This document shows positions 3,647-54,936 of a stretch of 64,000 nt of DNA, piece by piece. The stretch's first letter is position 1. Every line of letters begins with the position of its first letter. The translations under genes were made by a program, and so were the position numbers. Where the stretch lies: the NCBI RefSeq assembly GCF_016097405.1, contig NZ_JAEHGD010000001.1, positions 195,003 through 259,002 of the forward strand, read 5' to 3'. Under the pieces are notes generated by a model that was not told the DNA's origin, did no database searches, and was given only the letters and a program-made list of their open reading frames with translations. The stretch comes from a methane-oxidizing endosymbiont of Gigantopelta aegis (GTDB lineage: Bacteria; Pseudomonadota; Gammaproteobacteria; Methylococcales; Methylomonadaceae).

Positions 3647-5032
3647 ATGAAAACACCTCGTTCTGAAATTGACTTTAAATCATTCTCTTTTTCTGATGAA
3701 ATTTTGTCAGCGATTACTCAAATGGGGTTTAGTCAACCCACAGAAATACAACAGAAAACAATACCAGCCATATTGGCTGGAAAAGATGTACTGGCGCGTG
3801 CGGATACCGGCTCTGGAAAAACGGCAGCGTTTGCATTGCCCTTATTGGACTTGTTAAGTAATCAGAATCCCTATGTCCGAATAGGGCGTTTCGATCGTTT
3901 TAAACCCACTGAGCGGGTAGCCAGTAATCGTGTACAGGTGTTGGTTCTTGTTCCAACGCGTGAATTGGCGATTCAGGTGGCCGATGTGTTTATAAAGATG
4001 TCTGAAAATATTTCTCCCGCTATTAAATGCCTAAGCGCTTATGGTGGAGTGAAAATTAATCCTCAAATGCAAGCCTTGAGGGGAGGTGCTGATGTTTTGG
4101 TTGCTACGCCAGGGCGATTGCTCGATTTAGTTGATCAAAATGCAATTAAATTCAATCAGGTTAAAGCATTAGTGATTGATGAGGTTGATCGCTTGATGAA
4201 AGGTGATTTTTTAGAGGAGATCGAACGCATCAAAAAGCTGTTGCCCAATAAGATTCAGACATTGATGTTTACTGCCACTTTCCCTGAAAGTATTAGCATT
4301 TTGGTTCGAAATGTCATGAACAACCCCGAAGTGATCAATATAGATGAGTTTGTTGATAAACTTGAGATTGATCAGCGCGTTATTGAAGTTAATCATCATC
4401 AAAAAAATGATCTGTTAGCCCACTTGCTAGAAGAAAATGGCTGGAATCAGGTATTGATTTTTTGTAGCGCCAAGCGTACCTGCGACAATTTGCTTAAAAA
4501 GTTGGAAAAAAGAGGTATTAATGATGCCGCCGTTATGCACAGTAATAAAAAACAATCTGAACGGGCTGCGGCATTAGAGCGCTTTAAAGCGGGTGATGTG
4601 CGTATTCTTATTGCAACAGATGTGGCGGCGCGTGGTATTGATATTGAACAGCTGCCTTGCGTCATCAATTATGATTTGCCGCGATCGCCAAATGATTATA
4701 TTCATAGAACGGGGCGGACGGGGCGTGCTGGAGAAAATGGGGTGGTGATTTCTTTAATTGCCCATCATGAATATCAGCATTTTTCAGTGATCGAAAGACA
4801 TAATGGTTTCAATTTAAAGCGAGAGCGGTTAGAAGGGTTTGAGGTTGATGATGTCGCACCGGCTTTGCCACGCAAAAGCTCAAAAAAGAAGAAAACAAGA
4901 TTGAGCAAAAAACAAAAGGCAAGGCTTGGGGCTGAACAGAAATTAGATGGGCAAACTGAGAAAAAAATAGCTGAGACTGGCAGGGAGAAAACAAAAAAGC
5001 CGGCTGTGAATGCAGATATTTGGGGGAGATAA
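3647..5032 (+). CDS. rhlE: DEAD-box ATP-dependent RNA helicase, RhlE-like
   Basis: This 461-residue protein has the full helicase core: Q motif (FSQPTEIQQKTIP, residues 28-40), motif I ADTGSGKT (52-59), Ia PTRELA (103-108), TPGR (154-157), then the C-terminal domain with DVAARGID and HRTGRTGRAG. It remodels RNA in an ATP-dependent way, probably in ribosome assembly or cold growth. Two core motifs vary: motif II reads DEVD instead of DEAD (178-181) and motif III reads TAT instead of SAT. Residues 71-95 form a short insertion before Ia. The C-terminal 60 residues are a lysine-rich tail (KSSKKKKTRLSKKQ) suited to RNA binding. The assignment to RhlE rather than another subfamily is by overall similarity. 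Confidence 0.85.
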   Translation: MKTPRSEIDFKSFSFSDEILSAITQMGFSQPTEIQQKTIPAILAGKDVLARADTGSGKTAAFALPLLDLLSNQNPYVRIGRFDRFKPTERVASNRVQVLVLVPTRELAIQVADVFIKMSENISPAIKCLSAYGGVKINPQMQALRGGADVLVATPGRLLDLVDQNAIKFNQVKALVIDEVDRLMKGDFLEEIERIKKLLPNKIQTLMFTATFPESISILVRNVMNNPEVINIDEFVDKLEIDQRVIEVNHHQKNDLLAHLLEENGWNQVLIFCSAKRTCDNLLKKLEKRGINDAAVMHSNKKQSERAAALERFKAGDVRILIATDVAARGIDIEQLPCVINYDLPRSPNDYIHRTGRTGRAGENGVVISLIAHHEYQHFSVIERHNGFNLKRERLEGFEVDDVAPALPRKSSKKKKTRLSKKQKARLGAEQKLDGQTEKKIAETGREKTKKPAVNADIWGR

Positions 5033-5137
5033 AAAAGACATGTTTTTAATTTGATGACAAGTCTGGGTTAAAAAACTCATTCATCTGCCGCTATCTTTAA
5101 TAGCACGATTATTTGAGTTTATGCAGATCATGACGAA

Positions 5138-6271
5138 ATGAAGCATTGTCACTGGCGGGTTATTTTTTTATTTTTTGCTGTTTTGTCGACAGGCAATGCA
5201 ACGGTCGTTAGTGGGCCGTTGATTCAAGCTGCTTGGCATAATCAAGCGAGCAAAACTATATGCCTGTTTCAACAGGTGATTCCTGAGTATGGCGCGGTAG
5301 GGTTTCAGCAACAAGCCGGCTATGAGCTACAATTTTTTTATCATCCAAGTTATGGTTTTCCCGCGATTGAAAAAGCGAGTTTTTATATAACATCTGCACC
5401 GTGGCGAGATGAGCCCGTTTATCGGCACGATTATCCTGTCTTCCAAAATGATGCATCTGCCGTATTTGTCAATGCTGCAGGGGCGAATGCCGCATTAGAT
5501 GCCTTGTTAAAGGGGCAGTCAGCTGTTTTTCAGATTATCGCGGCGGAGGAGTATTTTTATATTACCGCTTTGCCGATCGATTTGAATCGATATCTACCCA
5601 AATTCCAGGCCTGTCGCGAGGCTTTGCTCCCATTTAATAAAAATCAATTACAGGGAGTGATTTTTTTCCATCCGGCACATATACAGCCTGGCGTTGAAGA
5701 TTTGAAACGATTGCAACATATTGCGCGTTATCTACAGGAATTCAAAAATACTAAGGTTGTGATTAGCAACGAAACGTATGCTGTGACTAAAGCTGATAAA
5801 AAGGTATTTGAGAAGCGTGCGCAACATATCAAACAAGCATTGATTAAATTCGGGGTACCTGCCGGCCGAGTTGTCATTCGTGTGGCAGCAAGCTCGTCCG
5901 GGAAGAATACCCTGTTATTACGCGTATTTGGTCCAGACGGGCTGATGCGATATTACTATCGTAAACGCAGTACGCGTTTGAGTTCAAAAGAAAGGCGACG
6001 CCTAGATAAGCTGGCAGAATATGTCAATCAATTTTATAAAACAGGACGTATCATCATTAGCAGTCATACTGATTCGAAAGGCCGTCGTGCCGATAATCTC
6101 AAGGTATCGCAGAAGCGGGGTGAGGTCGTGAAGCAATATCTTATTGCGCGGGGTATTCCGGCAGCGAGGATTGTTGTAAAAGCCTATGGTGAATCGAGAC
6201 CAGTCAAAAGCAATCGCTATCCACCAGGTAGAGCTATGAACCGACGCGTGGAAATTCGCTTTATGCCTTAA
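5138..6271 (+). CDS. MotY-like OmpA-family envelope protein
   Basis: This 377-residue protein has an N-terminal signal peptide (hydrophobic to about residue 21, ending near STGNA). The N-terminal domain has the features of MotY, the T-ring protein of sodium-driven flagella (ICLFQQVIPEYG, FQQQAGYELQFF). The C-terminal third is an OmpA/MotB peptidoglycan-binding domain (HTDSKGRRADNLKVSQKRGEVV, ending in MNRRVEIRFMP). An earlier region (residues 165-260) looks like a second, degenerate OmpA-like fold. It is predicted to be periplasmic. No flagellar gene is nearby, so the flagellar role is inferred from the family only. Confidence 0.75.
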   Translation: MKHCHWRVIFLFFAVLSTGNATVVSGPLIQAAWHNQASKTICLFQQVIPEYGAVGFQQQAGYELQFFYHPSYGFPAIEKASFYITSAPWRDEPVYRHDYPVFQNDASAVFVNAAGANAALDALLKGQSAVFQIIAAEEYFYITALPIDLNRYLPKFQACREALLPFNKNQLQGVIFFHPAHIQPGVEDLKRLQHIARYLQEFKNTKVVISNETYAVTKADKKVFEKRAQHIKQALIKFGVPAGRVVIRVAASSSGKNTLLLRVFGPDGLMRYYYRKRSTRLSSKERRRLDKLAEYVNQFYKTGRIIISSHTDSKGRRADNLKVSQKRGEVVKQYLIARGIPAARIVVKAYGESRPVKSNRYPPGRAMNRRVEIRFMP

Positions 6272-6276
6272 ACGGT

Positions 6277-6305
6277 TTGTTAAAATGTACCGATTATGGT
6301 ATAAA
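6277..6305 (+). promoter_or_regulatory. Sigma-70 promoter upstream of rpsB
   Basis: TTGTTA (6277-6282), a 17-base spacer and TATAAA (6300-6305) make a good sigma-70 promoter. The transcript would start near 6312, giving a leader of about 137 bases before rpsB. Confidence 0.65.
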
Positions 6306-6311
6306 GCACAG

Positions 6312-6448
6312 TTCATTTTTGATTTAATTCTCACATTTATCGACACAAGCAGCAGGGTGCTGATTATGGTGACATGATTGGTTGCTGTTTGGGATAAATG
6401 GAGGCGTAACCCAGACCGAAAATCCGGTCATTTAGTTAGGAGAAAAGT
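6312..6448 (+). promoter_or_regulatory. rpsB leader, possible S2 autoregulatory site
   Basis: The untranslated leader between the predicted start of transcription and the rpsB ATG contains a small hairpin (GACCG...CGGTC, 6414-6429) just upstream of the ribosome binding site TAGGAGAAAAG. S2 is known to repress its own mRNA through structured leaders in gammaproteobacteria. The position and structure fit, but the homology was not tested. Confidence 0.4.
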
Positions 6449-7195
6449 ATGGCTGCAGTATCAATGCGAGATATGTTGGAAGCAGGTGTTCACTTTGGAC
6501 ACCAAACCCGCTATTGGAACCCAAAAATGGCGCCTTATTTATTTGGTGCACGGAACAAAATCCATATCATTAATTTGGAAAAAACCCTTCCACTGTTTAA
6601 TGATGCGATGAACTATCTGGGGCAGGTAGCGGCTAACAAAGGCACAATCTTGTTTGTTGGCACCAAGAAGGCGGCACGTAAAACAGTTGCTGAAGAAGCA
6701 AAACGTTGCGGTATGCCTTATGTTAATCATCGCTGGTTAGGCGGCATGATGACAAACTTTAAAACCATTAAAAAGTCCATCAACCGTCTGAAAGAGTTGG
6801 AAGCCATGAAAGCTGATGGGACTTTGTACCAGCGTTTTAATAAAAAAGAAGCATTAGGCATGGAACGTGAACTGGAAAAACTGGAACGCAGTTTAGGCGG
6901 TATCAAGGATATGAAAGGATTGCCTGATGTTATTTTTGTGCTGGATGTCGGTTACGAAAAAAATGCTGTTCAGGAAGCTAAGAAATTAGGTGTTCCTGTG
7001 GTCGGTGTGGTTGATTCTAATAACTCACCTGAAGATATTGATTATGTTATTCCGGGCAATGATGATTCAATCCGCTCGATTAAATTGTATTGTCAAGCCG
7101 CATCAGCGGCAATTCTGGAGGCAAAAACAGCGGCATTGGCACAGTCTGCTAAGTCCGATGAGTTTGTTGAGGCAGAAGCTGAAGCCGAAGAATAA
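6449..7195 (+). CDS. rpsB: 30S ribosomal protein S2
   Basis: This 248-residue protein has the standard length and a hallmark start ([20 protein letters not shown]). It contains the conserved regions [23 protein letters not shown] and [12 protein letters not shown]2 joins the small ribosomal subunit late and helps recruit S1. It has an acidic C-terminal tail (EAEAEAEE). The start codon is fixed by the SD AGGAGA about 8 bases upstream. It is followed by a terminator/attenuator and then tsf, the classic rpsB-tsf arrangement. Confidence 0.98.
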
Positions 7196-45276: not shown

Positions 45277-45370
45277 TTACTGGGTCGACTAGACCGTAAA
45301 TTGCCGTCCTATATTTATAAACCAAGCAAAATAGTGCTTGGCTATTCATTACTACTTTGAGGTTCCTAAA

Positions 45371-46939
45371 ATGATTACAGAAGGAGTCGTTGAACTGTCG
45401 CGCTGGCAATTTGCTGTCACGGCACTGTATCACTTCCTGTTTGTTCCTCTGACACTGGGATTGTCATTTTTGTTGGCGATCATGGAGTCTTGCTATGTCA
45501 TGACAGGGCGACAAGTCTATAAAGACATGACACAGTTCTGGGGCAAGCTGTTCGGCATCAACTTTGCGTTAGGCGTTGCGACCGGGCTGACGATGGAATT
45601 CCAGTTCGGCATGAATTGGGCCTATTTTTCGCATTATGTTGGTGATGTGTTCGGTGCGCCACTGGCCATTGAAGGCTTGATGGCGTTTTTTTTGGAATCG
45701 AGTTTTGTGGGGCTGTTTTTCTTTGGCTGGGACAAGCTCAGCAAGGGCCAGCACCTCATGGTAACCTGGTTGGTGGCGTTAGGTACCAACTTGTCGGCCT
45801 TATGGATTTTGATTGCCAATGGCTGGATGCAAAATCCGGTCGGCGCCGAGTTCAATCTTGAAACCATGCGCATGGAGGTCAGTAGTTTTGGCCAATTGAT
45901 TTTTAATCCGGCCGCACAGGTCAAATTTGTTCATACCGTAGCTGCAGGCTACACCACAGCATCGGCATTTGTATTGGGTATCAGCGCTTTTTATATGTTG
46001 AAAGGACGCGATGCCGCATTTTCGCAGCGCTCTTATACCATTGCCGCAGGCTTTGGGCTGGCGGCGGTATTGGCGGTGATTGTGCTGGGCGATGAAAGTG
46101 GTTATACCGATGGCGAAGTACAAAAAGCTAAATTGGCGGCGATAGAAGCCGAATGGGAGACGGAAGAGCCGCCTGCCGCATTCACTTTGGTTGGCATACC
46201 CGACCAGGAGGCCATGGAAACAAAATATGCAATAAAAATTCCCTGGGTACTGGGTCTGATTGGGACGCGGTCGATTGATACACCTATTATGGGGTTGAAA
46301 GATATTCTGCTCAAAAATGAACAACGTATTCGTAATGGCATGAAGGCTTATGCGGCGTTACAGAAAATCAAAGACAGCGAAAAACCAATCGCGCCGGAAT
46401 TAGTCGCAGAATTTGAGCAATATAAGGCCGACCTAGGATATGGACTATTACTTAAACGCTGGGTAGACGATGTCTCAAAGGCGACGGAGGCACAAATTGC
46501 CGAGGCCGTACAATTTAGCATTCCGCGGGTGGTGCCGCTGTTTTGGACTTTCAGGGTTATGGTCGCCTGTGGCTTTATCATGCTGGTTATTTTTGCGTTG
46601 GCTTTCGCCATGAGTTCTATTCGCAAATGCCGTCAGGAATGGTTGTTGAAGTTGTCTTTCTGGATGATTCCGTTGCCATGGATTGCCTGTGAAATGGGCT
46701 GGTTTGTGGCGGAATTCGGACGCCAACCCTGGACTATTGCAGAAATTCTGCCGACGTTTCTTAGTGCCTCGTCGCTGACCGAATGGGATATTATTCTCAG
46801 TTTGAGTACCTATATTCTGGCGTACACCTGCTTTTTAATGATTGAAATGTTTTTAATGCTGAAATTTATTCGGTTGGGGCCGAGTTCCCTGCATACAGGG
46901 CGGTATCACTTTGAAATTGCAGAAGGAGCGGTCAAATGA
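45371..46939 (+). CDS. cydA: Cytochrome bd ubiquinol oxidase subunit I
   Basis: I choose ATG 45371 (MITEGVVELSRWQFAVTALYHF), which gives 522 residues, the E. coli CydA length; the frame from 45338 is longer without support. The heme b595 histidine is in the ALYHFLF segment (H21). The Q-loop is the long E. coli type, and the C-terminal region YGLLLKRW through PRVVPLFWTFRVMVACGF matches closely. It oxidises ubiquinol and reduces oxygen with high affinity in the inner membrane. It overlaps cydB by 4 bases. Confidence 0.97.
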   Translation: MITEGVVELSRWQFAVTALYHFLFVPLTLGLSFLLAIMESCYVMTGRQVYKDMTQFWGKLFGINFALGVATGLTMEFQFGMNWAYFSHYVGDVFGAPLAIEGLMAFFLESSFVGLFFFGWDKLSKGQHLMVTWLVALGTNLSALWILIANGWMQNPVGAEFNLETMRMEVSSFGQLIFNPAAQVKFVHTVAAGYTTASAFVLGISAFYMLKGRDAAFSQRSYTIAAGFGLAAVLAVIVLGDESGYTDGEVQKAKLAAIEAEWETEEPPAAFTLVGIPDQEAMETKYAIKIPWVLGLIGTRSIDTPIMGLKDILLKNEQRIRNGMKAYAALQKIKDSEKPIAPELVAEFEQYKADLGYGLLLKRWVDDVSKATEAQIAEAVQFSIPRVVPLFWTFRVMVACGFIMLVIFALAFAMSSIRKCRQEWLLKLSFWMIPLPWIACEMGWFVAEFGRQPWTIAEILPTFLSASSLTEWDIILSLSTYILAYTCFLMIEMFLMLKFIRLGPSSLHTGRYHFEIAEGAVK

Positions 46940-48075
46940 TTTTTGATTATGAAACATTACGCTTGATCTGGTGGGCCTTTTTAGGGGCATTGTTGATTGG
47001 TTTTGCCATCATGGATGGTTTCGATCTGGGCGTGGGTATGCTGCTGCCATTTTTAGGGAAAACCGATTTGGAACGGCGGGTGATTATCAATTCCATAGGG
47101 CCGACCTGGGAGGGAAACCAGGTCTGGTTTGTCACGGCCGGAGGCGCTTTGTTTGCTGCGTGGCCGATGGTGTATGCGGTATCATTTTCTGGCATGTATT
47201 TTGCGCTGCTGGCGACGCTATGCGCTATGTTTTTACGGCCTCTGGGCTTTGATTACCGGAGTAAGCTTAGCAGCCAGAAATGGCGTAATAACTGGGATAA
47301 AGCGCTTTTTGTGGGTAGTTTCGTGCCGGCTTTAGTAATGGGGGTCGGTTTCGGCAATTTGCTGTTGGGGTTACCGTTTAACTTTGATAATGATTTACGT
47401 ATGGTTTACTACGGCAGCTTTTGGGATTTATTGTCGCCATTCGCGCTGTTAGCCGGTTTGGTCAGCGTTAGCATGTATGTTATGCATGGTGCGATTTATT
47501 TGCAACTACGCACCGATGCGGAAATTTATCAGCGCTGTAAAAAAGTTGTGCTGTATGCCGGTTTAATCACGATAGCACTGTTTCTGTTAGCGGGTTTGTG
47601 GATCAGTCATTTGCCGGGCTATCACATCTTGACTGAAATCGTACCCGATGGGCCTTCTAATCCATTATTGAAGATGGTTAAAAAGGCAGAAGGTTTGTGG
47701 CTGGATAATTATAATCATTATCCCAGTCTTTGGGCCGTGCCGGCCGGGGCCTGCATCCTGGGGTTAGTTACCGTGTTCTTATCGCTCATCAATCGTCCGG
47801 GGTTGGCCTTTATCAGCAGCGGGTTAACGCTGACGGGGATCATTCTGACCGCAGGTGCCTCCATGTTTCCATTTTTAATTCCGTCCAGTATTGCCGTCAA
47901 CAGTTCTTTGACTGTCTGGGATGCCAGTTCTAGTGTCTCGACCTTGCATTTGATGTTTTGGGTGACGGTGATTTTTCTGCCGCTGATTATCGTGTATACC
48001 AGTTGGATATTTAAGATATTACGCGGAAAAATTACGGTGGATTACGTTCACGATAACGATCACAAGCTCTATTAG
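46936..48075 (+). CDS. cydB: Cytochrome bd ubiquinol oxidase subunit II
   Basis: This 379-residue membrane subunit (same length as E. coli CydB) has the start MIFDYETLRLIWWAFLGALLIGFAIMDGFDLG and the family region NSIGPTWEGNQVWFVTAGGALFAAWP. It forms the heterodimer core with CydA. Its stop at 48075 overlaps the ribosome binding site of the next gene. Confidence 0.97.
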   Translation: MIFDYETLRLIWWAFLGALLIGFAIMDGFDLGVGMLLPFLGKTDLERRVIINSIGPTWEGNQVWFVTAGGALFAAWPMVYAVSFSGMYFALLATLCAMFLRPLGFDYRSKLSSQKWRNNWDKALFVGSFVPALVMGVGFGNLLLGLPFNFDNDLRMVYYGSFWDLLSPFALLAGLVSVSMYVMHGAIYLQLRTDAEIYQRCKKVVLYAGLITIALFLLAGLWISHLPGYHILTEIVPDGPSNPLLKMVKKAEGLWLDNYNHYPSLWAVPAGACILGLVTVFLSLINRPGLAFISSGLTLTGIILTAGASMFPFLIPSSIAVNSSLTVWDASSSVSTLHLMFWVTVIFLPLIIVYTSWIFKILRGKITVDYVHDNDHKLY

Positions 48076-48085
48076 GAGGGCAGCC

Positions 48086-48679
48086 ATGTGGTATTTCAGT
48101 TGGATTTTGGGCGTCTTGTTGGCATGTTCCTTAGGTATTATCAATGTCTTGCGGCTGGAGGCCCAGGAAGCGCTAGCCAAAGAGCAGGAAGCGGTCGACC
48201 CGTTGACACGGTTTTTGGCGCGGGAAAGCATTCTGACCCGTTTGCGGGAAAAGGTCGATAATTCAAAACGCAATGGGCTGCCGTTTTCGATCATTTATCT
48301 GAGTATTCGTGATTTTCGTAACAAATATCAATTACCCGAGCATGAAATTGACACCACCTTATTGAAAGCGGTAAAAATCATGCAGCAAGATATTCGGGTG
48401 GGTGTCGATCTTGCCGGCCGCGTCAATGACGATGATTTTATTCTGGCGCTGCCGGGTGCTTCGTTCGAAAAAGCCGACGCGGTTGCCCAAAAAATTAAAC
48501 AAGACTTGTTTGAGCAAATCAAAACGCCATCAGGCTATCCGCTGGATGTCAATGTTGGTGTGGCTGAATATGCGCATCATCAGGGGGCATTCGATGAGGA
48601 TCATCTCCTTGGCCTTGAAGAAGTCGAGGCATTATTAAACATCGCTATCGCACGAAGTTTTGAGGCCGGCAATGCATAA
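48086..48679 (+). CDS. CydX fused to a degenerate GGDEF-like domain
   Basis: This 197-residue protein directly follows cydB (10 bases) with the binding site AGGAGGG. Residues 1-28 (MWYFSWILGVLLACSLGI...) match the small oxidase subunit CydX: one transmembrane helix that in E. coli is 37 residues long and stabilises the hemes. After a short linker, residues 38-190 follow the layout of a GGDEF domain: DPLTRFLARESILTRL, SIIYLSIRDF in place of the substrate-site strand, then GRVNDDDFILALPG, where GGDEF has become NDDDF (residues 114-118), and VNVGVAEY. The active-site residues are lost, so cyclase activity is unlikely; ligand binding or oxidase assembly is possible. The CydX topology would put the domain in the cytoplasm. 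Confidence 0.85.
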   Translation: MWYFSWILGVLLACSLGIINVLRLEAQEALAKEQEAVDPLTRFLARESILTRLREKVDNSKRNGLPFSIIYLSIRDFRNKYQLPEHEIDTTLLKAVKIMQQDIRVGVDLAGRVNDDDFILALPGASFEKADAVAQKIKQDLFEQIKTPSGYPLDVNVGVAEYAHHQGAFDEDHLLGLEEVEALLNIAIARSFEAGNA

Positions 48680-48726: not shown

Positions 48727-49239
48727 ATGGAACAGTCACATCTTGAGTTGCTTAAACACTGGCATCAGTGTGCGGGTAAAATCCTCAATACTGACGGAGC
48801 TGGCCTGAGTGATATGGATATCATTCAATTTCAAGCCTTGTTAATGGATAATGGCGCCGATTTGTTCCGTGCCTTCAAGCAAGGTGATATGACCGTTATT
48901 TTATCCGGCCTGGTTAATCTGTCTTATTCGGCGATGAGTGCAGCGGCACTGTCGGGCGGGCAAGGTGATATTTTTTCCACCACCGTTGATTGGCGTCATG
49001 ATGGCTTGATAATTTCCATCATACGCAGCCTGTCAAAACAGATTGCCGCCTGTGCCTCAGGTCAGGCGGAAGACTATGCTGCGCTATATGTATTATGCAA
49101 AAAACTGGCGCGGGATTTTTTGAATGCCGATTTTGATAAATCGTTTCAGCGGGTGCATCAGGCCAAAATGCAGGACAGGCATTTTCCGGCCAGTCGGCAT
49201 ATTTCGATGCCGGATTTAAGTGATTGTCTGTTCGAGTAA
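48727..49239 (+). CDS. Hypothetical protein, possible degenerate MazG-like fold
   Basis: This 170-residue soluble protein is mainly helical. The stretch FQALLMDNGADLFRAFKQGDMTVILSGLVNLSYSAMSAAAL resembles the two-helix core of MazG/phosphoribosyl-ATP pyrophosphohydrolase folds, where EExxE and ExxD metal ligands are expected. Here most acidic residues are missing, so activity is doubtful. It sits 12 bases before yfbR, a nucleotide hydrolase, which agrees with a nucleotide-related role, but this is an inference. Confidence 0.5.
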   Translation: MEQSHLELLKHWHQCAGKILNTDGAGLSDMDIIQFQALLMDNGADLFRAFKQGDMTVILSGLVNLSYSAMSAAALSGGQGDIFSTTVDWRHDGLIISIIRSLSKQIAACASGQAEDYAALYVLCKKLARDFLNADFDKSFQRVHQAKMQDRHFPASRHISMPDLSDCLFE

Positions 49240-49902: not shown

Positions 49903-52287
49903 ATGAACAATAAAAAAACTTTATCGGAACGGGATATTTGTACTAAATATATCACCCCTGCGTTGAAAAAAGCGGGTTGGAATATTCAGACACAGGTGCG
50001 CGAAGAGGTCTCTTTCACCGATGGGCGCATCTATGTCAAAGGCAATCTGAGCACGCGCGGCAAGCGAAAGCGCGCCGATTACATTCTCTATTACAAACCC
50101 AATATCCCCGTGGCCATTATTGAGGCAAAGGATAATAACCATTCCGTTCGGGCAGGCATTCAGCAGGGCATCGAATACGCTCGCATCCTTGATATTCCCG
50201 TGGTTTATAGCAGCAATGGCGATGGCTTCTACGAGCACGACAGAACCCGCAGCAAAGGTTCGTTGGAACAAGAACTATCGCTGGATACCTTCCCCTCGCC
50301 TGAAGAGCTTTGGCGGTGCTACAAGAAATACAAAGGCATTGACACGCCCGAGCAAGAGCAGGTCGCAGCCCAGGATTACTTCTTTGATGGCTCGGATCGC
50401 TCACCCCGTTATTACCAGCAAATCGCCATCAATCGCACCGTAGAAGCCATTGCCAAGGGTAAGCAACGCATTCTTTTGACCATGGCCACCGGCACGGGCA
50501 AGACTTATACGGCATTCCAGATTATTCACCGGCTTTGGAAAAGTGGCGTGAAAAAACGCATTCTGTTTCTTGCCGACCGTAATGCGCTGATTGATCAGAC
50601 CCGCCGCGGTGATTTTCGCCATTTTAAGGACAAGATGACAGTCATTAAACACAAGCGCATTGATAAGTCGTATGAGATTTATCTGGCGTTGTATCAGGGG
50701 CTGACCAATTATGATGAAGACAAGGATGCCTACCGCGAGTTCAGCCCGGATTTCTTCGATCTGATTGTGGTGGACGAATGCCATCGCGGCAGTGCCGCCG
50801 AAGACAGTGCATGGCGTGAAATCCTGCGCTACTTCAGCTCCGCCACGCATATTGGCCTGACGGCGACGCCCAGAGAAACCGAAGATGTTTCCAACAGCGA
50901 ATATTTTGGCGAGCCGGTGTACACCTATTCGCTCAGGCAAGGCATTAGCGATGGTTTTCTGGCACCATACAAGGTGTTGCGCATCGGCCTGAATGTCGAT
51001 CTGGAGGGCTGGCGACCAGAAAAAGGCAAGCGAGACAAATCCGGTCTGCTGGTCGAGGATCGCATCTACAACCGCAAGGATTTCGATAAAAATCTTGTGA
51101 TTGACGAGCGCACGGAAGCCGTGGCAAAGAAGGTGACGGAGTTTCTGAAAAAGCACAGCCGCTTTGATAAAACGATTATCTTCTGCACCGATATTGATCA
51201 TGCCGAACGCATGCGTGCGGCGATGGCGAATGAAAATGCCGATCTGATGGCTGAGGATGATCGCTATGTCATGCAGATTACCGGCGACAACGATGAAGGG
51301 AAACGGGAGCTGGATAACTTCATCAACCCCGAAGAGCGATACCCTGTGGTTGCCACCACATCCAAGCTGATGACCACGGGCGTGGATGCGCAGACCTGCA
51401 AGCTGATTGTGCTGGACAGCAATATCGGCTCAATGACCGAATTCAAGCAGATTATCGGGCGCGGCACACGCATCAACGAGGAATACGGCAAGTATTTCTT
51501 CACCATTATGGATTTCCGCAATGTCACCGATCTGTTTGCCGATCCGGCTTTCGATGGCGACCCGGTGCGCGTCAAGGAAATCGACGAGAATGAAGCGATT
51601 GAATCGGTGGAAGAGGAAGCGGCGGATGATACGCCCGTCAGCGATGAAGAAACGGGCGAAACGATTGAATTTCCCGATGATCCGCCTGAAATCAGAGCAG
51701 GCGGCGAGATTGTTTCCGAGCCTGCGCCGAAATACTATGTGAATGGCGTGAATGTGGCGGTGCTCAACGAGCGCATCCAGTATCTGGACGGTGATGGCAA
51801 GCTGATTACGGGCAGCCTGAAGGATTATACCCGCAGCAAGGTGCGCGAGCAGTTTCATTCACTGGATGCGTTCCTGAAAACATGGAATCAGGCGGAGAAA
51901 AAGAAAGCCATCATTGAGGAACTGACCGAGCAAGGCGTGATTTTTGAAGACCTCAGGGAAGCGGTAAGCAAGGAGATGGATGTGTTCGATCTGATTTGTC
52001 ATACGGCATTCGATCAGCCGCCGCTCACTCGCGCCGAGCGTGCCAAACAGGTGAAGAAGCGGGATTACTTTACCAAATATGGCGAGCAGGCGCGCAAGGT
52101 GCTGGAAGCCCTGCTCGATAAATACGCCGAGGAAGGCATTGAGAATATTGAGGATATGAAGGTGTTGCAGGTCAACCCATTGGATCGCTTCGGCTCCCCA
52201 GTTGAGATTGTGCGGCTCTTTGGCGGCAAGCGTCAATACCTTCAGGCATTGACGGAACTTGAACAGGAAATTTATAAGGCGGCATAA
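49903..52287 (+). CDS. hsdR: Type I restriction enzyme R subunit (EcoEI-like)
   Basis: This 794-residue protein starts with a PD-(D/E)XK nuclease (ADYILYY then AIIEAKD; Asp59, Glu74, Lys76). Two helicase domains follow: motif I TMATGTGKTYTAF, motif II VVDECHRGS, motif III GLTATPRETEDV and motif VI QIIGRGTRI. The C-terminal EcoEI_R_C-type region (LDAFLKTWNQAEKKKAI) follows. With HsdM and HsdS it would translocate DNA and cut unmodified targets. GC content looks higher than in the flanking core genes, in line with horizontal transfer. It is 6 bases upstream of hsdM. Confidence 0.94.
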   Translation: MNNKKTLSERDICTKYITPALKKAGWNIQTQVREEVSFTDGRIYVKGNLSTRGKRKRADYILYYKPNIPVAIIEAKDNNHSVRAGIQQGIEYARILDIPVVYSSNGDGFYEHDRTRSKGSLEQELSLDTFPSPEELWRCYKKYKGIDTPEQEQVAAQDYFFDGSDRSPRYYQQIAINRTVEAIAKGKQRILLTMATGTGKTYTAFQIIHRLWKSGVKKRILFLADRNALIDQTRRGDFRHFKDKMTVIKHKRIDKSYEIYLALYQGLTNYDEDKDAYREFSPDFFDLIVVDECHRGSAAEDSAWREILRYFSSATHIGLTATPRETEDVSNSEYFGEPVYTYSLRQGISDGFLAPYKVLRIGLNVDLEGWRPEKGKRDKSGLLVEDRIYNRKDFDKNLVIDERTEAVAKKVTEFLKKHSRFDKTIIFCTDIDHAERMRAAMANENADLMAEDDRYVMQITGDNDEGKRELDNFINPEERYPVVATTSKLMTTGVDAQTCKLIVLDSNIGSMTEFKQIIGRGTRINEEYGKYFFTIMDFRNVTDLFADPAFDGDPVRVKEIDENEAIESVEEEAADDTPVSDEETGETIEFPDDPPEIRAGGEIVSEPAPKYYVNGVNVAVLNERIQYLDGDGKLITGSLKDYTRSKVREQFHSLDAFLKTWNQAEKKKAIIEELTEQGVIFEDLREAVSKEMDVFDLICHTAFDQPPLTRAERAKQVKKRDYFTKYGEQARKVLEALLDKYAEEGIENIEDMKVLQVNPLDRFGSPVEIVRLFGGKRQYLQALTELEQEIYKAA

Positions 52288-53271
52288 GAAGAAATGGCGA
52301 ATATCAGCGGAATCGTAAAATCGGCACGCAAAATCATGCGGCAGGACACCGGCACAGGCAGCGATGAGTTGCGCATCCTGCAATTGGGCTGGATGCTGTT
52401 TCTGAAAATCTTCAGCGACAAGGACAAAGAATTGGAACTGCTGGATGATGATTATGTCTCGCCCATACCGGCGGAGTTACACTGGGATGCCTGGGCGTCG
52501 GATGACGAGGGCATGACCGGCGATGAGCTGATTCATTTCGTGGATCAAAAGCTGTTCCCCACGCTGGCGAATATTGATCTCTCCACGGGCAACAAACGCG
52601 CCGTGCTGGTGCGGGAGGTGTTTGCCAACAACTACAACTACATGAAGTCGGGCATCCACCTGCGGCAGGTGATCAACAAGCTCAACGAGATTGATTTCAA
52701 CAACAGCAAGGATAAACATGTTTTTGGGCAGATTTACGAAACCTTTCTTAGCGAATTGCAGAGCGCGGGCACGCTGGGCGAGTTCTACACCCCGCGCGCC
52801 ATCACCGAGTTGTTGACCGAACTGACCGACCCCAAGCCGCACGAAACCCTGCTTGATCCGGCCTGCGGCACGGGCGGTTTTCTCACGGCGGCGATTGAGC
52901 ATTTGAAGGAGAAGGCAAGCAGCGTGGAAGAGCGCGAGGCGATCGGGCGCAATGTACAGGGCTGGGAATACAAGCCGCTGCCCTACCTGCTAGCCAATAC
53001 CAACCTGATTCTGCACGACATCAATGTGCCCAATATCAAGTTTGACGACTCGCTGGCGAAACCGCTCACCGAATACCGGCAAAAGGATCGTGTGGATGTG
53101 ATTCTCGCCAACCCACCATTTGGTGGCGTGGTCTCCAACAACAATGAAAACAATTTTCCACAAAGCTTTTGCACCAAGGAATCGGCGGATTTGTTTCTGA
53201 TTCTGATGATTCACCTCTTAAAAGATGGTGGCAGGGCGGCGATTGTCTTGCCCGATGGCTCGCTCACGGGC

Positions 53272-54936
53272 GCTAAATGTCAACCAACCTGTCGCATTTT
53301 TTGCAATAATTTACGAAATGAATTTTATTAAGCTGCTTGACATTCTGTTGTGTTGAAATTTTCCTTATCCGGATTAAGATAAACATGGCCAATGGGCGTT
53401 AAATTTCGTGTTTGTCGTCCATTCCATCGCTCTGGATTGTCTCTTTTTGCTTGCTCGATGACTCGTTTTCTTTTTTCGAGTACGGCGCTGTCTAAGCCGT
53501 TATGGCGTTGGTTGGGTGTTACAAACTTGAGCGCACTGTGTTGATGTTCATTGTTGAACCAACAAACGAAAGCTTCAACCCAGTTCCTGGCTTCGCTTAA
53601 TGTTTTAAAAGGGTTTTCTGGAAAGGTATGATGATATTTGACTGTTTTAAATAACGATTCTGAATAAGGATTATCATTACTGACACGAGGTCTGCTGAAC
53701 GACGTGGCAATGTCTAAATCGACCAATTTGGCCCTTAATGTTGCGCCTTTCATCGGACTGCCGTTGTCAGAATGTATCACCAATTGCTTTTTGTCGATGT
53801 TTTCCCGGCGAGCGATATCTTCGATCAAATCAGCAGCGTGTGCGCTTGATTCGGCATCATGAACTTGCCAGCCTACGATTTTCCGACTATAGATGTCCAT
53901 CACCATGTAGAGGTAAAAATACTGCCCTTTGACGGGGCTTAATAAATACGTAATATCCCACGAGTAGATTTGATTGGCCTGTGTGGCTTTGAGTGACTGC
54001 GGTTTATTATGCTGACCTGCGGCTCCTTTAGCTCTGTGCTTAAGCTGGTTGTGGGCTTTCATGACACGATAAAGGTTGATTCTGATGCGAGATAGCAGCC
54101 CAAATCCAATAACCTCGGAACGATTTGATGCGGCGTTAAAGCGCTGTATTCCGGTTTATTAATCACGGTGATGATTTCTTGCTTGATGGCCTCGGATAAT
54201 TGATTGTGCACAGGCGCTGTATTGTGCAGTCGTAGGTCTTCTGAGAGTCCTTCTCCCCGGTTCCAACGCTGATAGGTTCGAGCTGATATACCCACCAGTT
54301 CACAGGCTAATTTCTGCCGCGCTCCATTGTCAACGGCTTCATCAATGAGTGCGCTGTAGTGTTGGCGATCTGAGTAGGCGATTAATCGGCCGCCTTTTCC
54401 CCCAGATCGCTTGGCACTTTTTGATAACACCAGTAAAGCCGCTGTTTCTGATAACGCTTTCTCTTTGCGGTTTAGCTCCTTATGCAAACGCTTGTTTTCT
54501 TGTTTGAGTTTTGTTTGCGCCTGTTTATATACGGATTCTGTTGATTTAGATTCTGACAAAAATTCCGCTTTCCAGGTATTTAGATGATGTAAGTAGATGC
54601 CTTGTTCACGACAATAGGCGCTAGCCTGATCATCGGTGAGATGATGACAATGAACAATGGCTTCAAAACGTTCTACTGTATTCCAATCTTGAGGGCTTTT
54701 TTCTTTTGACATGTTTGACTCTGTTTTTTCGAGTTGATTTTTCTTAGCTAACCGAATCCATTTTTGAAGTGTGGAGTAACCCACACCTAAAGTAACTGCA
54801 ATTTGCTTTAGCGATTGTTCTGGTCTTCTGGATAATGCTTTTTCTACTGATTGTACTTTAAATTCTTGGCTAAATACGCTCATTTTTGTCTCCTGATTTA
54901 AAATTTCCTAGGCGACAGGTATGTTGACATAGGGGG
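53272..54936 (-). mobile_element. IS3-family element, copy 2 (inside hsdM)
   Basis: The element is 1665 bp, with the transposase on the minus strand. It is bounded by a CGGGC duplication (53267-53271 and 54937-54941) and terminal repeats matching copy 1 (GCTAAATGTCAACC and CCCCCTATGTCAAC). It keeps the segment deleted in copy 1 and the CC missing there, but lacks one T in a TTTT run near 54075, which splits the transposase. The parent element must have had both intact. Confidence 0.92.
53328..54883 (-). pseudogene. IS3-family transposase of copy 2, one frameshift
   Basis: The start MSVFSQEFKVQSVEKALSRR at 54883 has an HTH_Tnp_1-type domain (about 1-50), then a second HTH region, a coiled coil and another HTH (ALIDEAVDNGARQKLACELVGISARTYQRW). 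The frame ends at 54059 because one T is missing near 54075. The DDE core continues as 53328-54062 (KAHNQLKHRAKGA..., WDITYL, HSDNGSP, YSESLFKT). With the T restored the protein is a single ORF of about 520 residues. Programmed frameshifting at this T run is an alternative, but copy 1 has four T here and reads through. Confidence 0.85.

What the first reader, a model, noticed from the sequence alone, without database searches (positions are those of the whole stretch)
48086..48679. CydX fused to a degenerate GGDEF domain in the cytochrome bd operon
The N-terminus (MWYFSWILGVLLACS) is a clear CydX, placed exactly where cydX belongs after cydB. Instead of ending near residue 37 it continues into a GGDEF-like domain with the signature changed to NDDDF. 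A small oxidase subunit carrying a cytoplasmic nucleotide-domain relic could couple oxidase assembly or activity to cyclic-di-GMP or GTP, or simply stabilise CydAB. I know of no described example.
Basis: partly seen in the sequence, partly recalled or inferred. Interest (0 to 1): 0.85.

Follow-up and report, generated by a model that had tools for sequence, protein, structure and literature searches.

The report
Oxidase subunit CydX carrying dead GGDEF
In many methane-eating bacteria the tiny helper subunit of an oxygen-consuming enzyme, cytochrome bd, carries on its inner end a signalling-type protein domain whose catalytic site is gone but which evolution preserves, so a respiratory enzyme appears to have a built-in docking or sensing module of unknown trigger.

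Summary
Window 48086-48679 (+) encodes a 197-residue protein 10 nt after cydB. Residues 1-35 are a full CydX (Pfam and NCBIfam models above cut-off); residues 36-197 are a GGDEF domain by profile and predicted fold. It is no sequencing error or drifting relic: 68 copies occur in 67 of 311 Methylococcales genomes (14 genera, two families), all but one unaffected by contig ends. Fusion-type CydA rows form one clade (100/97). In 66 of the 67 genomes there is a single CydX match; the 67th has two, both fusions. None was found in samples of the wider class or phylum. The GGDEF part is under purifying selection (median dN/dS 0.19).

The domain is a pseudo-cyclase: of 51 copies aligned, 0 keep the first metal Asp, 0 keep Gly-Gly, 1 keeps the strict RxxD inhibitory site; an invariant R-x3-D stands instead. 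Fusion-specific invariant residues suggest a conserved binding role. By homology with E. coli cryo-EM the domain is cytoplasmic.

Best reading: working CydX joined to a catalytically dead GGDEF docking or regulatory module. Ligand and partner are unknown; c-di-GMP or GTP coupling is not shown. No description was found in the papers searched.

The parts
45371..46939 (+). cydA, cytochrome bd subunit I; the only CydA match in the genome held
   Evidence: PF01654 E 2e-167 (the query began at 45362); one match in the genome. Start placed at ATG 45371 by reading and by comparison with two relatives.
46936..48075 (+). cydB, cytochrome bd subunit II; overlaps the end of cydA
   Evidence: PF02322 E 7.5e-101; TIGR00203 above cut-off
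48074..48079 (+). AGGAGG ribosome-binding site overlapping the cydB stop; a GGAG/AGGA/GAGG motif lies within 25 nt upstream of 49 of 51 fusions
   Evidence: sequence
48086..48679 (+). cydX-GGDEF fusion gene, 197 aa (stop TAA 48677-48679)
48086..48190 (+). CydX part, residues 1-35: predicted helix 3-32; Glu25 conserved (E. coli CydX Glu25 is the 'float' at the cytoplasmic face)
   Evidence: PF08173/TIGR02106; AF2 model; E25 invariant in the 20 rows of A1; PMC6853902 passage
48191..48676 (+). degenerate GGDEF domain, residues 36-197
   Evidence: PF00990; fold matches DgcB Z 20.8, PleD 20.2, FimX 19.4
48302..48304 (+). Ser73, in place of the first metal-binding Asp (0 of 51 fusions have D; 22 of 22 GGDEFs of the same genome that were aligned do)
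48395..48409 (+). R104-V-G-V-D108: re-spaced inhibitory-site motif, R-x3-D in 51 of 51 fusions
48425..48439 (+). NDDDF, residues 114-118, position of the GGDEF signature; Gly-Gly in 0 of 51 fusions

Best explanation
The gene encodes the CydX subunit of a Methylococcales cytochrome bd oxidase whose transmembrane helix runs straight into a cytoplasmic GGDEF fold. The CydX half does the ordinary CydX job, clamping CydA; this is inferred from homology and from there being no other CydX match in the genome. The GGDEF half no longer makes c-di-GMP (shown at the level of residues only). It is kept as a non-catalytic binding module (inferred from selection and from fusion-specific near-invariant residues). 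The most likely role is docking: holding a cytoplasmic partner, or a second oxidase through domain-domain contact, at the CydX helix and so tuning assembly, stability or activity of the oxidase. A ligand acting through the re-spaced R104-G106-D108 site is the main alternative. Partner, ligand and direction of signalling are unknown.
For: Both halves match curated models (20 of 20 members of A1). 68 copies in 67 of 311 Methylococcales genomes, with a clear score gap to ordinary GGDEFs. The cydB-to-fusion gap is 8-15 nt in 48 of the 49 loci, of 51 examined, where it could be measured. Fusion-type CydA rows form one clade, 19 rows against 49 others, support 100/97. A single CydX match in 66 of the 67 genomes (read together); the window's genome has one cydA. 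dN/dS of the GGDEF part: median 0.19 over 78 close pairs of 1275 possible, highest 0.36. Predicted fold GGDEF. Lost catalytic residues: D73 0 of 51, GG 0 of 51, against 22 and 21 of 22 GGDEFs of the same genome. Thirteen positions at 90% or more in fusions and at most 6 of 22 in those GGDEFs: E55, K56, N59, F67, S68, S73, E87, I103, R104, G106, G124, E161, V180. E. coli CydX has its C-terminus in the cytoplasm (PMC6853902 passages), tolerates a C-terminal tag (PMC6005532 passages), and its homologue AppX is the main contact of an oxidase dimer in one cryo-EM structure (PMC8585947 passages).
Against: No partner, ligand or expression was tested. Purifying selection may partly reflect the need to fold, and the GGDEF part evolves faster than the CydX part (pooled dN/dS 0.19 against 0.017). 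One genome (G297) has intact cydAB with a GGDEF part broken after about 65 residues, so the domain may be dispensable, or that assembly is wrong. Other Methylococcales run a bd oxidase with a short CydX, so the domain is not needed for the oxidase as such. AF2 confidence in the CydX helix and the junction is low (10-residue means 52-61).
Confidence: 0.55

Rival explanations
1. Nucleotide receptor: the domain binds c-di-GMP (through the re-spaced R-x3-D site), GTP or another nucleotide, and binding changes oxidase assembly or activity through the CydX helix.
For: R104 and D108 are invariant in 51 of 51 although the catalytic site has decayed. Guanine-side positions (roles recalled from PleD) are partly kept: F77 51 of 51, D89 39 of 51, N or H at 81 in 45 of 51. 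The genome has a large c-di-GMP network: 29 GGDEF matches, the fusion and fragments included, and 20 EAL matches. Degenerate GGDEF receptors are known (listing and abstract starts only).
Against: Strict RxxD in 1 of 51 fusions against 19 of 22 ordinary GGDEFs; D108 and R112 are about as conserved in ordinary GGDEFs (19 and 21 of 22) and so say little. First metal Asp and Gly-Gly are lost in 51 of 51, the C-terminal AKxxGRN in 50 of 51.
Confidence: 0.25
2. Passive structural add-on: the domain only stabilises CydX or the oxidase or blocks proteolysis, with no regulation.
For: CydX has mainly a structural role (PMC8951039 passages). The domain is absent from other Methylococcales oxidases. One truncated natural copy exists.
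Against: Residues that ordinary GGDEFs of the same genome do not conserve (E55, K56, N59 on one helix; E161) are near-invariant, which seems more than folding needs; whether they are surface-exposed was not measured.
Confidence: 0.15
3. Active diguanylate cyclase or phosphodiesterase anchored on the oxidase.
For: Related to active cyclases by profile.
Against: D73 0 of 51, GG 0 of 51, E at position 117 in 8 of 51; no EAL match in the protein.
Confidence: 0.02
4. Artefact: a lost stop or frameshift joins two genes, or the two halves are made separately.
For: None found beyond the oddity itself.
Against: 68 copies without internal stops in 67 genomes. No conserved internal start near the junction: the Met seen at residue 49 in 39 of 51 is Ile in the window.
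Confidence: 0.02

Closest known systems
CydX / AppX / CydS small subunit of cytochrome bd oxidase (Pfam PF08173, TIGR02106)
   Same: N-terminal MWYFxWILG helix, Glu25, gene directly after cydB, above curated cut-offs
   Different: 197 aa instead of about 30-50. The survey of over 300 homologues (PMC4325964, outline and passages; its supplements not seen) tells of N-terminal extensions, and the words GGDEF, fused and fusion do not occur in its main text.
Degenerate GGDEF domains used as receptors or docking partners (such as FimX, PelD; roles recalled)
   Same: GGDEF fold with a broken signature, no catalysis expected; FimX GGDEF matches at Z 19.4
   Different: Fixed to an oxidase subunit; strict RxxD missing in 50 of 51; no EAL or PAS match
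SiaD-type diguanylate cyclases (NF038266; PDB 7e6g)
   Same: Among the closest sequence and fold relatives
   Different: PDB calls SiaD a diguanylate cyclase with activator SiaC and its signature is GGEEF in the alignment; score here 52 against a cut-off of 290, so not a member
Membrane transporter-GGDEF fusions ('Ammonium transporter', PDB 8qj3)
   Same: An integral-membrane metabolic protein with a C-terminal GGDEF domain
   Different: A transporter, not a respiratory enzyme; whether its GGDEF is active was not examined

Membership tests
CydX (TIGR02106 / PF08173) | score above curated cut-off | tested here: met
   55.5 bits against 31.6; 55.3 against 26.2
CydX (TIGR02106 / PF08173) | encoded directly after cydB of a bd-type operon | tested here: met
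CydX (TIGR02106 / PF08173) | small protein, one helix only | tested here: not met
   197 aa with a second domain; hence a variant of CydX, not an ordinary one
CydX (TIGR02106 / PF08173) | needed for oxidase assembly or activity | not testable with these tools
   inferred only: a single CydX match in 66 of 67 genomes
GGDEF domain (PF00990) | profile score above gathering score and GGDEF fold | tested here: met
   47.0 bits against 23.8; Z 20.8 to DgcB
Active diguanylate cyclase | GG(D/E)EF signature and metal-binding Asp | tested here: not met
   GG 0 of 51, D73 0 of 51; controls 21 and 22 of 22
c-di-GMP I-site receptor (degenerate GGDEF) | RxxD motif before the signature | tested here: not met
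   strict RxxD 1 of 51 and not in the window's protein; R-x3-D 51 of 51
c-di-GMP I-site receptor (degenerate GGDEF) | binds c-di-GMP | not testable with these tools
   needs ITC or another binding assay

The most novel reading that the evidence does not exclude
A terminal oxidase under direct nucleotide control: the CydX-borne pseudo-GGDEF binds c-di-GMP or another nucleotide at a remodelled R-x3-D site and, through the CydX helix, sets assembly or activity of cytochrome bd, so that biofilm signalling and respiration of methanotrophs meet in one protein.
Probability: 0.2. Interest if true: 0.9.

Novelty: new variant of a known kind. Interest (0 to 1): 0.64.

Why it matters
CydX is taken to be a mainly structural 30-50 residue peptide, and signalling domains on terminal oxidase subunits are, as far as searched here, undescribed. 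A conserved pseudo-GGDEF fixed to the clamp helix of cytochrome bd in many methanotrophs would make direct, post-translational control of a high-affinity oxidase testable. It would also offer a handle on how methane oxidisers adjust respiration at low oxygen.

Tried and rejected
Sequencing error or separate genes: rejected, 68 copies without internal stops and no conserved internal start. Active cyclase: rejected on residues. Neutral relic: not supported, dN/dS 0.19. Several independent fusions: not supported, one CydA clade; the first tree without outgroups, drawn with a midpoint root, put three deep fusion rows beside the short-CydX group, which the outgroups resolved. Perfect FNR boxes (TTGA[TC]N4[AG]TCAA) upstream of cydA: 0 of 43, so it led nowhere. 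Other long CydX in the class: seven open frames over 90 aa besides the own one; six were read and the length proved to lie upstream, CydX itself ending at 32-50 aa in the 8 loci read (G321, open frame 100, not read). Long open frames in genus g12 were likewise upstream frame in the three read (L221-L223). The downstream 170-aa gene as part of the system: matched only in L026 among the 88 loci compared, within the stretches held, so left out. Literature: the listings of all ten searches showed no CydX-GGDEF fusion; seven papers were opened and seen as passages only (PMC4325964 also as outline): PMC4325964, PMC8951039, PMC5322542, PMC6005532, PMC6853902, PMC8585947, PMC6956133. PMC5322542 passages give an older prediction that the CydX C-terminus is periplasmic; the cryo-EM paper PMC6853902 says cytoplasm, and I followed that. 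PMC6956133 counts GGDEF proteins and cydAB operons of methanotrophs and, in the passages seen, does not link them. VIA-align is a second look at Foldseek matches only.

Full report
What is there. The window holds cydA, cydB and then, 10 nt after the cydB stop, a 197-codon ORF at 48086-48679 (+). The first 27 residues match the CydX family and residues 36-165 the GGDEF family, both above Pfam's gathering scores; NCBIfam's CydX equivalog model is also above cut-off. A structure predicted from nine aligned sequences (mean pLDDT 74.6, pTM 0.68; residues 1-40 weak, 10-residue means 52-61) shows a helix 3-32 followed by a GGDEF fold. Solved GGDEF structures are its best matches: DgcB Z 20.8, PleD 20.2, FimX 19.4.

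It is conserved, not an accident. A profile of 20 fusions was run over 311 Methylococcales genomes. By my hand count of that listing, 68 places (67 over nearly the whole profile, one in G150 running into a contig end) lie in 67 genomes of 14 genera and two families, with E 1.4e-69 or better. Below them come a second copy in G163 cut by a contig end (7.6e-67), a fragment in G301 (1.7e-37), broken pieces in G297 (6.3e-36 and weaker), and then ordinary GGDEFs from 7.7e-24. In a sample of the class (369 genomes, the own one and three more of the order included) and of the phylum (398, partly the same genomes) only the own genome has it. These searches scored at most 10 or 8 first-look candidates per genome, so the counts are lower bounds. 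An independent look by the CydX family agrees: 62 of 369 class genomes have a match, and apart from the own one six of the seven open frames over 90 aa were read and proved to be upstream frame, CydX being short. The name Methylococcales for the window's order rests on these records.

Operon and descent. I fetched 80 regions from G handles, besides the 8 fusion loci. From 52 of these regions (L148-L199, minus the short-CydX ones within the set handled separately) plus the window and L026, 51 loci's set passed as full-length fusions over 150 aa; that script reported L173, L185 and L186 as having none. The set covers 51 of the 69 places including the cut G163 copy. The gap to cydB is 8-15 nt in 48 of 49 measurable cases and 65 nt in one; a Shine-Dalgarno-like motif precedes 49 of 51. 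In two relatives (G030, G106) cydA is not beside cydB, yet cydB and the fusion stay together. Against the window's CydA, the short-CydX oxidases of the same order are 59-70% identical (the two lowest, 59 and 61%, are partial), the fusion-type ones mostly 75-96%, with a deep branch at 69-71% (G011, G115, G040) and one divergent row at 65% (L183). With outgroups, fusion-type CydA are one clade (19 of the 44 fusion rows, 18 of 23 short rows and 31 of 66 outgroup rows used; support 100/97), which fits one origin. Reading together, 66 of the 67 genomes have one PF08173 match, and G154 has two, both fusions; one search's list of places was cut, so for some genomes I infer rather than saw that the one match is the fusion. 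The window's genome has one cydA; of 22 relatives checked, five (G106, G107, G142, G148, G154) show a second CydA match, in G106 a 25-position piece at a contig end. So if the oxidase works, the fusion must do the CydX job; that is inference.

Selection and residues. In 78 of 1275 pairs, those with dS 0.1-0.8 (not independent), the GGDEF part has median dN/dS 0.19 (range 0.04-0.36); pooled over the pairs it is 0.19, and 0.017 for the CydX part. Compared with 22 near-complete GGDEF domains of the same genome (22 of 29 matches; the fusion itself and six partial matches left out), the fusions lost the first metal Asp (0 of 51 against 22 of 22), Gly-Gly (0 of 51 against 21 of 22), the Glu of the signature (8 of 51 against 22 of 22) and the C-terminal AKxxGRN (1 of 51 against 18 of 22, with slightly different search patterns for the two sets). 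Signature letters vary widely (DEQDF 10, GEQDF 4, NDDDF 2 and so on). The strict RxxD is in 1 of 51 against 19 of 22; instead R104-x3-D108 is in 51 of 51. Residue roles (metal, guanine, I-site) are assigned from recalled knowledge of PleD and WspR. Thirteen positions at or above 90% in fusions are rare (at most 6 of 22) in those GGDEFs, including E55, K56 and N59 on one helix and S73 at the old metal site.

Topology. In the E. coli cryo-EM structure the CydX C-terminus faces the cytoplasm with Glu25 as a float (PMC6853902, passages). Glu25 is invariant in the 20 aligned fusions. An older prediction placed the C-terminus in the periplasm (PMC5322542, passages). The first seems the better evidence, and a GGDEF domain makes sense there.

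Mechanism. Shown: fusion, conservation, loss of the catalytic residues, fold by prediction. Inferred: CydX function retained, cytoplasmic site, non-catalytic binding role. My order of likelihood is docking or regulation without a canonical ligand site first, nucleotide sensing through the re-spaced site next, and passive stabiliser third. AppX can hold two bd-II oxidases together, though whether it does so in the membrane is open (PMC8585947, passages), and GGDEF domains often pair (recalled), so domain-assisted pairing of oxidases is a concrete form of the docking idea. Against it stand the missing direct evidence and the G297 genome, where cydAB is intact but the GGDEF part is broken.

Novelty. 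The survey of over 300 CydX homologues mentions N-terminal extensions; GGDEF, fusion and fused are absent from its main text (PMC4325964, outline and passages). Searches for CydX with GGDEF, CydX with diguanylate, cytochrome bd with c-di-GMP, methanotroph with cytochrome bd and GGDEF, and terminal oxidase with GGDEF domain listed nothing that describes it by title or abstract start. The library holds open-licence papers only. I rate it a new variant of a known kind: CydX and pseudo-GGDEF domains are known, their union in an oxidase is new as far as I could see.

Noticed in passing
   Followed up: partly
L185 (G301:C56): Decayed operon: a piece of cydB runs directly into a piece of the fusion's GGDEF part, and no CydA match was found in that genome.
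   Followed up: partly
L193 (G030:C32:83662-90400), 54-2406: Three ORFs, the last with a Fic-like HPFREGNGR motif (meaning recalled), lie upstream of cydB where cydA would be expected; cydA is about 4 kb further upstream.
   Followed up: partly
L178 (G107:C21:28403-35100), 4785-6700: A second, divergent cydAB pair stands downstream of the cydAB-fusion operon.
   Followed up: no
L197 / L029 (G023), about 1573-1600 of L197: cydA is split into two overlapping ORFs near residue 228, a frameshift or an assembly error.
   Followed up: no
48727-49239: 170-aa ORF downstream of the fusion; no Pfam or NCBIfam match, only PHROG hits of E 0.12 and weaker; 86% identical counterpart in the same place in L026 and in none of the other loci compared, within the stretches held.
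   Followed up: partly
49903-53331: ORFs that by eye look like the R and M subunits of a type I restriction system; the M-like ORF ends abruptly. Not searched.
   Followed up: no
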